Both the position numbers and the translations under genes were made by a program. Of a DNA stretch of 64,000 nt, positions 42,501 to 46,799 are shown piece by piece; position 1 is the first letter of the stretch; each line of letters opens with the position of its first letter. Below the pieces are notes generated by a model, which did no database searches, was not told where the DNA came from, and worked only from the letters and a program-made list of their open reading frames with translations. Source of the DNA: Yersinia intermedia (GTDB lineage Bacteria > Pseudomonadota > Gammaproteobacteria > Enterobacterales > Enterobacteriaceae); NCBI RefSeq assembly GCF_900635455.1, contig NZ_LR134116.1:4030001-4094000 (forward strand), given 5' to 3'.

Positions 42501-42532
42501 TTGATTTTATCATCCGTAATGATTATCATTAC
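42501..42532 (+). promoter_or_regulatory. Promoter with overlapping Fur box for the microcin operon
   Basis: GTAATGATTATCATTAC (42516-42532) is a perfect palindrome close to the Fur consensus. TTGATT (42501) and TATCAT (42524) form a -35/-10 pair on 17-bp spacing, so bound Fur would cover the -10. Iron-limited, Fur-controlled expression is known for microcins V and H47. The site lies about 52 bp before the first gene. Confidence 0.75.
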
Positions 42533-42583
42533 CAACTAATTAGTGGTTGTAATTATTATCGTCATGGAATTAGGCGGGCTTAT

Positions 42584-42769
42584 ATGGAATACAACAAAAA
42601 GAATGCAATATATAACGTAGTAAGTCTTTTTATTACTATATTAATCTCATTTTGGTCAAGCGTGTCAATTATTAATAACAAAAATATGTTCGATATTATA
42701 TTAGTGCTGGTGTTTTTTTTCGGGACTAGGGCAATAATTAAATTTGCATGTGACGTAATGAATAAATAA
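42584..42769 (+). CDS. Candidate microcin immunity protein
   Basis: A 61-aa membrane protein with two hydrophobic helices (about residues 10-30 and 37-54) and a short basic C-terminus (FACDVMNK). It is the first gene after the Fur-box promoter and lies 34 bp before the microcin precursor gene. Small two-helix proteins encoded next to class II microcins are typically the self-immunity factors. No sequence match to a named immunity protein is recognised; the role rests on position, size and topology. Confidence 0.65.
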   Translation: MEYNKKNAIYNVVSLFITILISFWSSVSIINNKNMFDIILVLVFFFGTRAIIKFACDVMNK

Positions 42770-42803
42770 TAATTTCAACGTAATATACAAGGAAATGTAA
42801 TTT

Positions 42804-43306: not shown

Positions 43307-43342
43307 AGGATTTATCACAAACGATTATTTCTGATAAATCCT
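43307..43342. promoter_or_regulatory. Inverted repeat upstream of the microcin export genes
   Basis: Perfect 11-bp arms AGGATTTATCA (43307) and TGATAAATCCT (43332) around a 14-base centre, in the 315-bp gap before the cvaA-like gene. It could be an operator or an RNA hairpin; the gap also has room for a separate promoter. Confidence 0.5.
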
Positions 43343-43435
43343 CCTTAATTTTCAGGATTCGAATACCAATGGTCAGAAAACTTATGCTAATACGTAGATA
43401 TGGCTACCCGTGAGTTAACGCGACGGAGGTGTCTG

Positions 43436-44710
43436 TTGTTTCGCCAGGAAGCGATCGAAAATCAGAAAATGAAGTGGCGCGGTCGAGCAATCTTGCTCCC
43501 CGGCATCCCGGTCTGGTTGGTAGGGGGGTTCTGTACCTTCTTCTTTGTTGCCTTTCTGGCGTTCATCATTGCTGGCACCTACACCCGGCGAGTTAATGTC
43601 GGTGGCGAGATAACCACTTATCCAAGGGCCGTGAGTGTGTATTCCGGCGTGCAGGGTTTTGTGGTGAGGAAATTTGTCACGGAAGGATATATCGTCAAAA
43701 AAGGCGATCCTGTTTACCTGATTGACATCAGTAAAAGTACCCGCAGCGGTGTTGTCAGCGATAATCAGCGTCAAGGTATTGAGCATCAACTTGAACGCAT
43801 CGGTAATATTATTTCACGTATTGAGATCAGTAAAAAAACGACACTGAATTCGCTGGAAAAACAAAAAATACAGTATACCGCTGCCTTTAAGCGCTCTTCA
43901 GCGATTATCAATAAAGCAGAGCAGGGAATAAAGATAATGAAGGATAATATGGATAATTATCGTCGCTATCAAATAAAAGGATTAATCAACAAAGATCAAC
44001 TGACCAATCAGGTTGCGCTGTATTATCAACAGCAAAATAATTTATTAAGCCTGAGCGGGCAGAATGAACAGAATTCATTACAGATAATCAATCTTGAGAG
44101 CCAAATTCAAACTCAGTCGGCGGAATTTGATAACCGTATTTATCAAATGGAACTTCAGCGCTATACGTTACAAAACGAGCTCGTCAATACGGATGCGGGT
44201 GGCGAAATCATTGTGCGCGCATTGTCGGACGGACAAATAGACTCGTTGAGCGTTACGGTGGGCCAGATGGTCAATGTTGGCGACAGCTTGCTGCAAATCA
44301 TTCCTGAGTTGATAAGTCACTACTCTCTGGTTATCTGGGTACCCAATGATGCTATTCCCTATATAACAATCGGGGATAAGGTTAATGTCCGCTATGAAGC
44401 ATTTCCGGCAGAAAAGTTTGGACAATTTGCCGGTACTGTTGAGGTGATATCGAAAACGCCGGCATCACCGCAGGAAATGATGACTTATCAGGGCGCACCG
44501 AAAAATACGCAAGCAGCCTCTATCCCTTATTACAAGATTATCGTCAGACCCGAGCAACAAACAGTTTTTTACGATGGGAAACGATTAAGCCTTGAGAATG
44601 GCATGAAAGCACAGAGCACACTTTTTCTCGAAAAAAGAAAAATTTATGAATGGATGCTTTCACCATTTTATGACATGAAGCACAGTGCGATGGGGTTGGT
44701 TAATGAATAA
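43436..44710 (+). CDS. Microcin secretion adaptor (HlyD family, CvaA/MchE-like)
   Basis: Membrane-fusion protein that connects the peptidase-ABC exporter to TolC for one-step secretion of the microcin. It is 424 aa from a TTG start: one TM helix (about residues 20-44), a long coiled-coil hairpin (around residues 120-245), a lipoyl region (RALSDGQIDSLSVTVGQMV) and a beta-barrel. TTG is chosen because GGAGG lies six bases upstream and the resulting N-terminus FRQEAIENQKMKW aligns with CvaA-type proteins; an ATG at 43400 would add 12 residues without a ribosome site. It is close in sequence to MchE/CvaA throughout. Its stop overlaps the next start. Confidence 0.93.
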   Translation: MFRQEAIENQKMKWRGRAILLPGIPVWLVGGFCTFFFVAFLAFIIAGTYTRRVNVGGEITTYPRAVSVYSGVQGFVVRKFVTEGYIVKKGDPVYLIDISKSTRSGVVSDNQRQGIEHQLERIGNIISRIEISKKTTLNSLEKQKIQYTAAFKRSSAIINKAEQGIKIMKDNMDNYRRYQIKGLINKDQLTNQVALYYQQQNNLLSLSGQNEQNSLQIINLESQIQTQSAEFDNRIYQMELQRYTLQNELVNTDAGGEIIVRALSDGQIDSLSVTVGQMVNVGDSLLQIIPELISHYSLVIWVPNDAIPYITIGDKVNVRYEAFPAEKFGQFAGTVEVISKTPASPQEMMTYQGAPKNTQAASIPYYKIIVRPEQQTVFYDGKRLSLENGMKAQSTLFLEKRKIYEWMLSPFYDMKHSAMGLVNE

Positions 44711-46799
44711 GACCTCGTTTAACGCCATGATCCAGAAAGTAGACCTTGGTTTTCGTCATTCTGTTCCGGTGGTGCATCAGACGGAATCCTCGGAATGTGG
44801 GTTGGCCTGTCTGGCGATGATATGTGGGCACTATGGAAAGAATATCGATCTGATCTCCCTGCGACAACAATTTAACCTTTCTGCACGTGGTGCCACACTG
44901 GCCGGAATTAACGGCATAGCAGGACAGCTGGGCATGACGACACGGGCGTTGTCGCTGGATCTGGGAGAGATGGGCTCACTGAAAAAACCGTGCATACTTC
45001 ACTGGAATTTTAACCATTTTGTCGTACTGGTGAGTGTGCGGCGACAACGTTTTGTGATCCACGATCCCGCCAGAGGGCGTCGGACAGTAGGGCTGGCCGA
45101 GATGTCTCAATACTTTACCGGTGTGGCGCTTGAGATCTGGCCGGGGAGTGAATTTACCGCGGAAACCGTGCGTAATCGTATCCGTCTGGGCAGACTTATT
45201 CGCAGTGTGCAGGGGATCAAAGGGGCACTGATAAAAATCTTCAGTTTGTCCCTGGTGATAGAGTCCATCAATCTGGTTATGCCGGTCGCCACTCAACTGG
45301 TTATGGACCATACCATCCCAGCCGGAGATCGTGGTCTGCTCACCCTTATCTGTGTCGGGTTACTGTTTTTTATTCTGCTACGGGCAGCCGTCAGCATGGT
45401 GCGTGCCTGGTCGTCACTGGTGATGGCAACACTGATAAACGTGCAGTGGAAAATCGGGCTATTTTCCCATCTTATACATTTGCCACTGGGCTATTTTGAA
45501 CGGCGCAAGTTAGGTGATATTCAGTCTCGTTTTGGCTCGCTTGATGCTCTGCAGGCCACGTTCACGACCAGTGTCGTCGGGGCTATGATGGACGGTATCA
45601 TGGTTATCGGTGTGCTGGTGATGATGGTGCTGTATGGCGGCTATCTGACCTGGATTGTACTGGGTTTTACTGTGGTGTATGTGCTTATCCGTCTTCTGAC
45701 CTATGGTTACTATCGACAGCTATCAGAAGAGTCCTTGATCAGAAGTGCACGCGCCAGCTCCTATTTTATGGAGACCCTGTACGGAATAGCGACGGTTAAA
45801 ATGCAGGGCATGACTGAGCGGCGTAGTGCTCACTGGCTTAATCTGGAGATTGATACCATCAACACCGGTATCAAAGTGACTAAAATGGATTTGTTTTTTG
45901 GGGGAATAAACACGTTTATAGCCGCCTGCGATCAGGCTGTCATTCTGTGGCTGGGAGCCAGTCTAGTGATCGATAATCAAATGACTCTCGGGATGTTTGT
46001 GGCATTTGGGGCATTCAGAGGACAATTCTCTGACCGTGTATCCTCGCTGACCAGTTTCTTACTCCAATTGCGGATGATGAGCCTGCACAATGAACGTATC
46101 GCCGATATTGCCCTGAACGAGACAGATAACCAAAAACCCGACAGGTCCTATGTGGCAGAAATGCAGCCGTTTTCACTGGAAGCACGTGATTTGACCTACC
46201 GTTATGACAGTCAGTCTCCCCCTGTCTTCAGCGACCTGAACATCACGGTCATGCCGGGCGAAAGTGTGGCTATCATGGGGCCTTCGGGTGCGGGGAAAAC
46301 AACTCTGATGAAGGTGCTTTGTGGTTTGTTTGAGGCGGGTTCAGGCAAGGTGATGGTCGATGGTACTGATATCCAGCAACTGGGGATAAACAATTATCAC
46401 AAGATGATTGCCTGTGTCATGCAGGATGACAAGTTGTTTTCCGGCTCTATACGGGAAAATATTGGTGGGTTTGCAGACGATATTGATGAGTTATGGATGA
46501 TTGAATGTACCAGAGCAAGTTACATCCACAATACCATCATGAAAATGCCAATGGGTTATGAAACGCTGATTGGGGAATTAGGTGAAGGGCTTTCAGGTGG
46601 ACAGAAACAACGGATCTTTATCGCAAGAGCGCTGTACCGTAAACCGGGTATTCTATTTATGGATGAGGCGACAAGCCACCTTGATAAAGAGAGTGAGGAG
46701 TTTGTCAATCAGGCGATAAAAAAGATGAATATTACACGGATTATCATTGCCCACAGGGCTTCGACGATTAAATCGGCGGACAGGGTCATAACAATATGA
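44703..46799 (+). CDS. Microcin peptidase-containing ABC exporter (CvaB/MchF-like)
   Basis: Inner-membrane exporter that removes the double-glycine leader and pumps the microcin out. It is 698 aa, the length of CvaB. The N-terminal C39 peptidase has Cys32 (SSECGLAC), His105 (NFNHFVV) and Asp121 (IHDPARG), the same positions as the catalytic triad of CvaB, which supports this ATG over one six codons earlier. A six-helix ABC membrane domain follows, then an ATPase domain with GPSGAGKTT, LSGGQKQR and LFMDEATSHLD. It overlaps the adaptor gene by eight bases. All motifs are intact. Confidence 0.95.
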   Translation: MNKTSFNAMIQKVDLGFRHSVPVVHQTESSECGLACLAMICGHYGKNIDLISLRQQFNLSARGATLAGINGIAGQLGMTTRALSLDLGEMGSLKKPCILHWNFNHFVVLVSVRRQRFVIHDPARGRRTVGLAEMSQYFTGVALEIWPGSEFTAETVRNRIRLGRLIRSVQGIKGALIKIFSLSLVIESINLVMPVATQLVMDHTIPAGDRGLLTLICVGLLFFILLRAAVSMVRAWSSLVMATLINVQWKIGLFSHLIHLPLGYFERRKLGDIQSRFGSLDALQATFTTSVVGAMMDGIMVIGVLVMMVLYGGYLTWIVLGFTVVYVLIRLLTYGYYRQLSEESLIRSARASSYFMETLYGIATVKMQGMTERRSAHWLNLEIDTINTGIKVTKMDLFFGGINTFIAACDQAVILWLGASLVIDNQMTLGMFVAFGAFRGQFSDRVSSLTSFLLQLRMMSLHNERIADIALNETDNQKPDRSYVAEMQPFSLEARDLTYRYDSQSPPVFSDLNITVMPGESVAIMGPSGAGKTTLMKVLCGLFEAGSGKVMVDGTDIQQLGINNYHKMIACVMQDDKLFSGSIRENIGGFADDIDELWMIECTRASYIHNTIMKMPMGYETLIGELGEGLSGGQKQRIFIARALYRKPGILFMDEATSHLDKESEEFVNQAIKKMNITRIIIAHRASTIKSADRVITI

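What the first reader, a model, noticed from the sequence alone, without database searches (positions are those of the whole stretch)
42501..46799. Apparently intact class II microcin operon with an unfamiliar mature peptide
Seen: a 94-aa precursor with a microcin-type leader ending VSGA, a two-helix candidate immunity gene before it, and complete CvaA/MchE-like and CvaB/MchF-like export genes, the latter with the C39 residues at positions 32, 105 and 121. Known: this is the layout of the colicin V/MccL/MccH47 groups in Escherichia. Inference: the mature peptide (Gly/Ala-rich core, C-terminal two-Cys loop) is not one I recognise, so it may be an undescribed Yersinia microcin. It sits in a block where everything else nearby is decayed, which suggests selection to keep it.
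Basis: partly seen in the sequence, partly recalled or inferred. Interest (0 to 1): 0.9.

Follow-up and report, generated by a model that had tools for sequence, protein, structure and literature searches.

The report
Hybrid Yersinia microcin with H47-type core
A Yersinia chromosome carries a complete gene set for a small secreted antibacterial peptide that joins the killing half of the known microcin H47 to a different receptor-binding tail, which fits the idea that bacteria build new microcins by swapping tails.

Summary
The operon is real and looks complete: Fur-box-like site, 61-aa membrane protein, 94-aa precursor, HlyD-type adaptor and 698-aa C39 peptidase/ABC exporter. The mature peptide is only half unfamiliar. 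Its first half is the microcin H47 core (67% over 61 residues). Its 34-residue tail has two cysteines instead of the siderophore motif, and MchC and MchD queries find nothing in the genome. The 61-aa protein is a distant relative of MchI, the H47 immunity protein: an HMM without Yersinia or Erwinia sequences finds it (E=2e-4), and its other locus hits below E=0.5 lie beside H47-type cores. So this is a class IIa hybrid microcin, a kind described in 2026 for Erwinia/Pantoea (PMC13174018). Suggestive, not proven: five other Yersinia genomes carry a microcin with a colicin-V-type core and unrelated immunity candidate but a tail resembling this one (C-X7-C-G; 0-9 of 2000 shuffles reach the score; a tail profile does not confirm it). 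Likely mode: receptor-mediated entry, then ATP-synthase-dependent killing. Activity is untested.

The parts
42515..42533 (.). Fur-box-like palindrome upstream of the operon
   Evidence: 16 of 19 bases of the consensus I recalled; only match with up to 3 mismatches in the window, 0.06 expected, 6 of 100 shuffles had one
42584..42769 (+). 61-aa MchI-like immunity candidate
   Evidence: 33% over 48 aa to MchI; MchI-only HMM E=2e-4; z 7.5 to MchI, -0.3 to Cvi
42804..43088 (+). 94-aa microcin precursor
   Evidence: relatives to E=7.3e-43; PF17508 MccV 24.7 bits, below the 27-bit cut-off
42804..42848 (+). leader peptide, 15 aa, ending in Gly-Ala
   Evidence: aligned with the MchB leader
42849..42983 (+). 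H47-type killing core
   Evidence: z 17.0 to the MchB core, 0.3 to the CvaC core
42984..43088 (+). 34-residue two-Cys tail (C-X7-C-G) and stop; presumed receptor-binding part
   Evidence: shared with P0001; resembles tails of a colicin-V-type Yersinia microcin
43436..44710 (+). HlyD-type membrane-fusion (adaptor) gene; frame open from 43400
   Evidence: PF13437 E=2.6e-14; 46-74% identity to three relatives
44703..46799 (+). C39 peptidase/ABC exporter (CvaB/MchF type), 698 aa
   Evidence: PF03412, PF00664, PF00005; 60%, 80%, 77% identity to three exporters

Best explanation
A class IIa hybrid microcin operon. Shown by sequence: leader, H47-type core, two-Cys tail without siderophore motif, MchI-like neighbour and complete exporter pair. 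Inferred: under iron starvation Fur releases the promoter; the 61-aa protein protects the producer; the C39 domain cuts after Gly-Ala and the 79-residue peptide (about 6.97 kDa) leaves through the ABC/HlyD pair and TolC; the two tail cysteines (mature residues 70 and 78) close a loop that binds an outer-membrane receptor of related enterobacteria, in place of the siderophore of MccH47; [quoted passage not shown] Core and immunity gene behave as one exchangeable module, the tail as another.
For: Core: 67% over 61 aa to MchB, z 17.0. Immunity: an HMM built from MchI and five homologues without Yersinia or Erwinia finds the window protein at E=2e-4 among 10,611 frames and proteins; its other locus hits below E=0.5 lie in L009, the Y. 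aldovae locus and L052, L053, L054, L055, L057, L058, all fetched by core matches; z 7.5 to MchI, about 0 to Cvi and to the small ORFs beside the colicin-V-type microcin. Tail: no Ser/Gly end; MchC and MchD queries find nothing in the genome, while MchD finds an 87% relative in a control plasmid. One core with many tails; P0003 joins this core to an MccV-type tail (z 15.5). Fur box. Published hybrids of the same plan.
Against: No activity, processing, receptor or target is shown. The immunity match to MchI is weak (33%). The MchI-only HMM hit 7 of the 15 places of the core search below E=0.5 (loci L051-L065): it missed L056 and the weaker core matches L059, L060, L062-L065, and gave L061 E=0.91. 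Absence of MchC lacks a working control. The published hybrids inhibited much less than MccV, and unspecific burden was not excluded there. The structure model was too poor to use.
Confidence: 0.74

Rival explanations
1. The same hybrid microcin and delivery, but the core kills by another route (a pore or another membrane target), not through ATP synthase.
For: The Gly/Ala-rich core could simply insert into the membrane; the immunity protein is only 33% like MchI.
Against: The core is 67% identical to MchB, whose action needs the proton channel, and the MchI-like gene goes with it.
Confidence: 0.2
2. A silent or dying relic: open frames but no longer expressed or exported, as the neighbouring CRISPR-Cas locus suggests.
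For: The adjoining I-F CRISPR-Cas locus is wrecked; a colicin-V-type microcin locus looks decayed in Y. aldovae.
Against: All four frames are full length with catalytic residues kept; a close homologue with the same tail and both Cys exists in Y. enterocolitica; a Fur-box-like site is in place.
Confidence: 0.12
3. A class IIb siderophore microcin, its tail modified by enzymes encoded elsewhere.
For: Its core is that of a class IIb microcin and a Fur-box-like site precedes it.
Against: The C-terminus is NCG, not the Ser/Gly motif; MchC and MchD queries find nothing in the genome.
Confidence: 0.04
4. An exported peptide with a purpose other than killing bacteria.
For: Some authors allow that class II microcins may act on hosts.
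Against: The core is that of a proven bacteriocin, with an immunity-type gene before it.
Confidence: 0.04

Closest known systems
Microcin H47 (MchB, MchI, MchE/MchF)
   Same: Leader and core (67% over 61 aa); distant MchI-like immunity; CvaB/MchF-type exporter
   Different: Tail: two Cys, no Ser/Gly siderophore motif; no MchC or MchD homologue detected
Hybrid class IIa microcins of Erwinia and Pantoea (PMC13174018)
   Same: H47-like core, two-Cys tail, no siderophore genes nearby, candidate immunity gene and T1SS (section 18)
Colicin-V-type microcin at another chromosomal site in five Yersinia genomes (L030, L031, L033, L034, L039)
   Same: Tail with C-X7-C in the same register in all five; 7 of 16 aligned residues identical to that of L030
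   Different: Core is CvaC-like (z 8.5 to CvaC, 1.9 to MchB for L030); immunity candidates unrelated to the window's
Microcin V (CvaC, Cvi)
   Same: Class IIa plan with two Cys near the end; exporter family
   Different: Core z 0.3, tail z -1.2, immunity z -0.3

Membership tests
Class II microcin | Short precursor with double-glycine type leader (GG or GA) | tested here: met
   Leader MKELNLNQIKMVSGA aligned with MchB
Class II microcin | C39 peptidase/ABC exporter and membrane-fusion protein nearby | tested here: met
Class II microcin | Adjacent small membrane immunity gene that protects | tested here: inconclusive
   Gene present and MchI-like; protection not testable here
Class II microcin | Antibacterial activity | not testable with these tools
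   Needs an assay
Class IIb (siderophore) microcin such as MccH47 | Ser/Gly-rich C-terminal motif | tested here: not met
   C-terminus is CFISGGKNCG
Class IIb (siderophore) microcin such as MccH47 | Modification genes MchC/MchD | tested here: not met
   No match in the own genome; control worked for MchD only
Class IIa microcin | No modification other than disulfide; cysteines present | tested here: inconclusive
   Two Cys present; disulfide and mass need mass spectrometry
H47-core hybrid microcin | H47-type core with a different, two-Cys tail | tested here: met
H47-core hybrid microcin | ATP-synthase-dependent killing and receptor set by the tail | not testable with these tools
   Inferred from MccH47 and MccV as reported in PMC13174018 and PMC12511343

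The most novel reading that the evidence does not exclude
Yersinia has its own receptor-binding tail cassette that has been attached to two unrelated killing cores, one H47-type (this operon) and one colicin-V-type (the microcin of five other Yersinia genomes), each core keeping its own immunity family. Natural microcins would then be assembled from a genus-specific address label and an exchangeable warhead-plus-immunity module.
Probability: 0.45. Interest if true: 0.62.

Novelty: new member of a known kind. Interest (0 to 1): 0.48.

Why it matters
Validated class II microcins are few and mostly from Escherichia coli (abstract of PMC9746304). A hybrid in Yersinia with the H47 core, and relatives with many different tails on that one core, give a natural series in which uptake and killing can be separated. 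The predictions are simple: the immunity protein follows the core and the receptor follows the tail. If the tail is shared with the colicin-V-type Yersinia microcin, the two peptides should use one receptor but their immunity proteins should not cross-protect.

Tried and rejected
Plasmid origin of precursor or immunity gene: tblastn against 72,556 plasmid records found nothing for either, although 830 plasmid records match the whole-operon query at 60-80% identity, the 20 listed over the exporter genes only. E. coli: 736 of 5426 genomes match at 60-80%, none over 80% of the query.

Structure: AlphaFold2 with 8 sequences gave mean pLDDT 48.9; not used, no fold search made. PDB sequence search of the precursor gave one chance-level hit (E 1.3).

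Tail homology by profile: an HMM of the five Yersinia colicin-V-type tails does not show the window tail in its 30 printed hits and gives P0001 6.4 bits, E 4.9. This speaks against my tail-sharing reading; pairwise shuffling speaks for it (z 3.4-5.3, 0-9 of 2000 shuffles; with Cys positions fixed z 2.1-3.7, 10-102 of 2000). I noticed the likeness before I tested it. A genome search with a tail alignment that includes the window is not independent; it matched 8 of 392 genomes, six of them outside Yersinia and weak (E 3.1e-4 to 9e-3), not followed up. The Y. aldovae copy (L032), which looks decayed and has Phe at the first Cys, was left out of the tail test.

Rows dropped: for alignment A2, nine of the fifteen homologues (P0004, P0006-P0009, P0011-P0014: MccH47 itself, extended or broken); for A5 the same nine plus P0029, P0030 (partial MccH47) and P0033 (weak).

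Selection: no second DNA copy of the operon, so no dN/dS. Species: the one genome-contig scan returned Y. aldovae and E. piriflorinigrans; the genus follows because G010, listed as same genus, has the Y. aldovae contig (148,369 bases).
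Full report
What is there. Window 42501-46850 holds, on the + strand, a Fur-box-like palindrome (42515-42533, 16 of 19 bases; the only match with up to three mismatches in 64 kb, 0.06 expected), a 61-aa hydrophobic ORF (42584-42769), a 94-aa precursor (42804-43088), a HlyD-type adaptor (frame open from 43400) and a C39-ABC exporter (ATG 44703, end 46799). The adaptor frame contains TTG 43436, six bases after a GGAGG, and relatives begin at that point (MFRQEA), so that is the likelier start. 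The adaptor's end overlaps the exporter's start. The exporter is not truncated: it is collinear over 698 residues with a Yersinia relative one residue longer, and Cys32, His105, Asp121, GPSGAGKTT and LSGGQ are present (motif roles recalled).

What the peptide is. The first 61 residues are 67% identical to E. coli MchB, the MccH47 precursor; shuffling gives z 17.0 for the core against MchB and 0.3 against CvaC. A protein search finds 15 relatives at E up to 1 and a profile search 34 at E up to 0.01 among the 8000 candidates scored. After the core they diverge: the 25-row alignment shows, by eye, more than ten different tails, among them the Ser/Gly tail of MccH47, RVCxIERGYQVC tails...G(E/Q)C(R/N)W tails like the PDI-type ones described in PMC13174018, one MccV-type tail (P0003), and the present C-X7-C-G tail, which only P0001 shares. 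P0001 is called 'microcin H47 [Yersinia enterocolitica]' by its source although it lacks the Ser/Gly tail. The window's own precursor was not returned as an exact entry.

Class. The C-terminus is not the Ser/Gly motif, and queries with MchC (from a Salmonella plasmid) and MchD (E. coli) find nothing in the own genome. The MchD query finds an 87% relative in a Salmonella plasmid; the same control for MchC did not run. By sequence the peptide is class IIa, with the core of a class IIb microcin.

Immunity. The 61-aa protein aligns with MchI over 48 residues at 33% and is 51% identical to the ORF before the Y. aldovae relative. To avoid circularity I built an HMM from MchI and five homologues without Yersinia or Erwinia sequences and searched 10,611 frames and proteins from the loci then held. 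It finds the window protein at E=2e-4, Y. aldovae at 3e-5 and E. piriflorinigrans at 1e-19; the other locus hits below E=0.5 are in L052, L053, L054, L055, L057 and L058, all fetched by the core alignment. Counted over the 15 places, own included, 7 have such a hit; L056 and the weaker core matches L059, L060 and L062-L065 have none, and L061 has E=0.91. The small ORFs beside the colicin-V-type Yersinia microcin gave none. Pairwise shuffling agrees: z 7.5 to MchI, 6.2 to E. piriflorinigrans, 5.3-7.5 to three of those ORFs, -0.3 to Cvi, and -0.8 to 0.4 to four ORFs beside the colicin-V-type microcin. So this immunity family goes with the core, over several different tails.

The tail. In five other Yersinia genomes (L030, L031, L033, L034, L039) a CvaB-like exporter (with a stop inside in the genome of L034 and partial in that of L039) is accompanied by a 107- or 108-aa precursor whose core is like CvaC (tested for L030: z 8.5; 1.9 to MchB) and whose tail ends ...PDSYYICRMTGKLNCG in four and a variant in one. 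The window tail ends ...PSIYAQCFISGGKNCG: 7 of 16 identical to L030 without a gap, same Cys spacing. Against the five tails z is 3.4-5.3, with 0-9 of 2000 shuffles reaching the score; with Cys positions held fixed z is 2.1-3.7 and 10-102 of 2000 do. Of 18 relatives' tails tested against the L030 tail, only P0001, the window's close relative, stands out (z 5.8; all others 0.8 or less). Against this, a profile of the five tails does not pick the window out. I take a common origin of the tails as a little less likely than not. The window's genome does not carry the colicin-V-type operon: its only exporter match at E up to 1e-100 is the window's own, and beside the gene that flanks that operon elsewhere (an asd-like gene, name recalled) it holds other genes.

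Where it sits. The operon follows, at 42387, the remains of a type I-F CRISPR-Cas locus: three repeats, a Csy4/Cas6f C-terminal piece and two Cas3 pieces. In G003 and G014 the same sequence blocks lie about 5.1 kb and 1.5 kb further apart, so the window strain has probably lost those stretches. The exporter is closer to E. coli and Salmonella exporters (80%, 77%) than to the Yersinia one of L030 (60%), which suggests horizontal arrival of the cassette.

How it would work. Iron starvation, export with leader removal, receptor binding by the tail, killing by the core with need of the ATP-synthase proton channel, protection by the MchI-like protein. The MccH47 steps come from PMC13174018 (sections 18 and 19 and passages) and PMC10233263 (passages); that the last 32 residues of MccV suffice for its receptor specificity from PMC12511343 (passages). 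For this peptide every functional step is inferred.

What is known. PMC13174018 (2026) describes six Erwinia/Pantoea hybrids of this plan; five of the seven candidates with consistent inhibition in both trials belong to that cluster, but inhibition was weaker than with MccV and unspecific burden was not excluded. PMC9746304 (section 8 and passages) reports putative microcins in 51.9% of sampled Yersiniaceae species; its supplement could not be read here, so this locus may be in its list. PMC13101503 (passages) says Serratia accounts for much of that. My searches for class II microcins in Yersinia (listings, judged by title and start of abstract) show no paper on one from Yersinia itself. The finding is a new member of a recently described kind; the possible Yersinia tail cassette is what would lift it above that.

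Noticed in passing
L031:1867-3872 (G016); L033:8252-10242 (G023); peptide also in L039 (G020): In the same chromosomal island as the colicin-V-type Yersinia microcin: a 68-70-aa peptide with GG-type leader and one Cys (SGGNDDYNPGPSMTWGGVMDVVRSCSWPGGFYGDPNPSYTGGGFSTQR in L031) next to a SunS-like glycosyltransferase (L031: TIGR04195 188 bits, E=2.3e-55, below the 350-bit cut-off; PDB 7msk E=1.5e-47). Candidate S-glycosylated bacteriocin (glycocin) in a Gram-negative; listings show no title about one in Yersinia. Found in 3 loci.
   Followed up: partly
protein P0003 (7,938-base contig, source unnamed): A natural H47-core microcin whose tail matches MccV (29 aligned residues, z 15.5; tblastn hits in 385 plasmid records, the eight listed over the tail only): a natural counterpart of the H47/V fusions made in the laboratory by Azpiroz and Lavina (cited in the papers; original not held).
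   Followed up: partly
window 39872-42387: Wrecked type I-F CRISPR-Cas locus with three repeats, a Cas6f piece and Cas3 pieces, directly upstream of the microcin operon; G003 and G014 hold longer versions of it.
   Followed up: yes
L032:4644-4910 (G010, Y. aldovae): The colicin-V-type Yersinia microcin gene looks decayed here: the frame lacks a normal leader and the first tail Cys reads Phe. The same genome holds an H47-core relative elsewhere (L002).
   Followed up: no
L005:4409-4744 (E. coli) and L035:7930-8169 (G006): Two further small ORFs with microcin-type leaders near exporter genes; they match neither the H47-type nor the C-X7-C tail pattern by eye.
   Followed up: no
window 37705-39246 (-): 513-aa ORF with a lipoprotein-like start (by eye) and a match to the Tle1-like phospholipase catalytic domain (E=3.4e-11).
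   Followed up: no
proteins P0001 and P0016: Deposited names mislead: P0001 is named microcin H47 though its tail differs, and P0016, the Y. aldovae relative, is named DNA polymerase III subunits gamma and tau.
   Followed up: no
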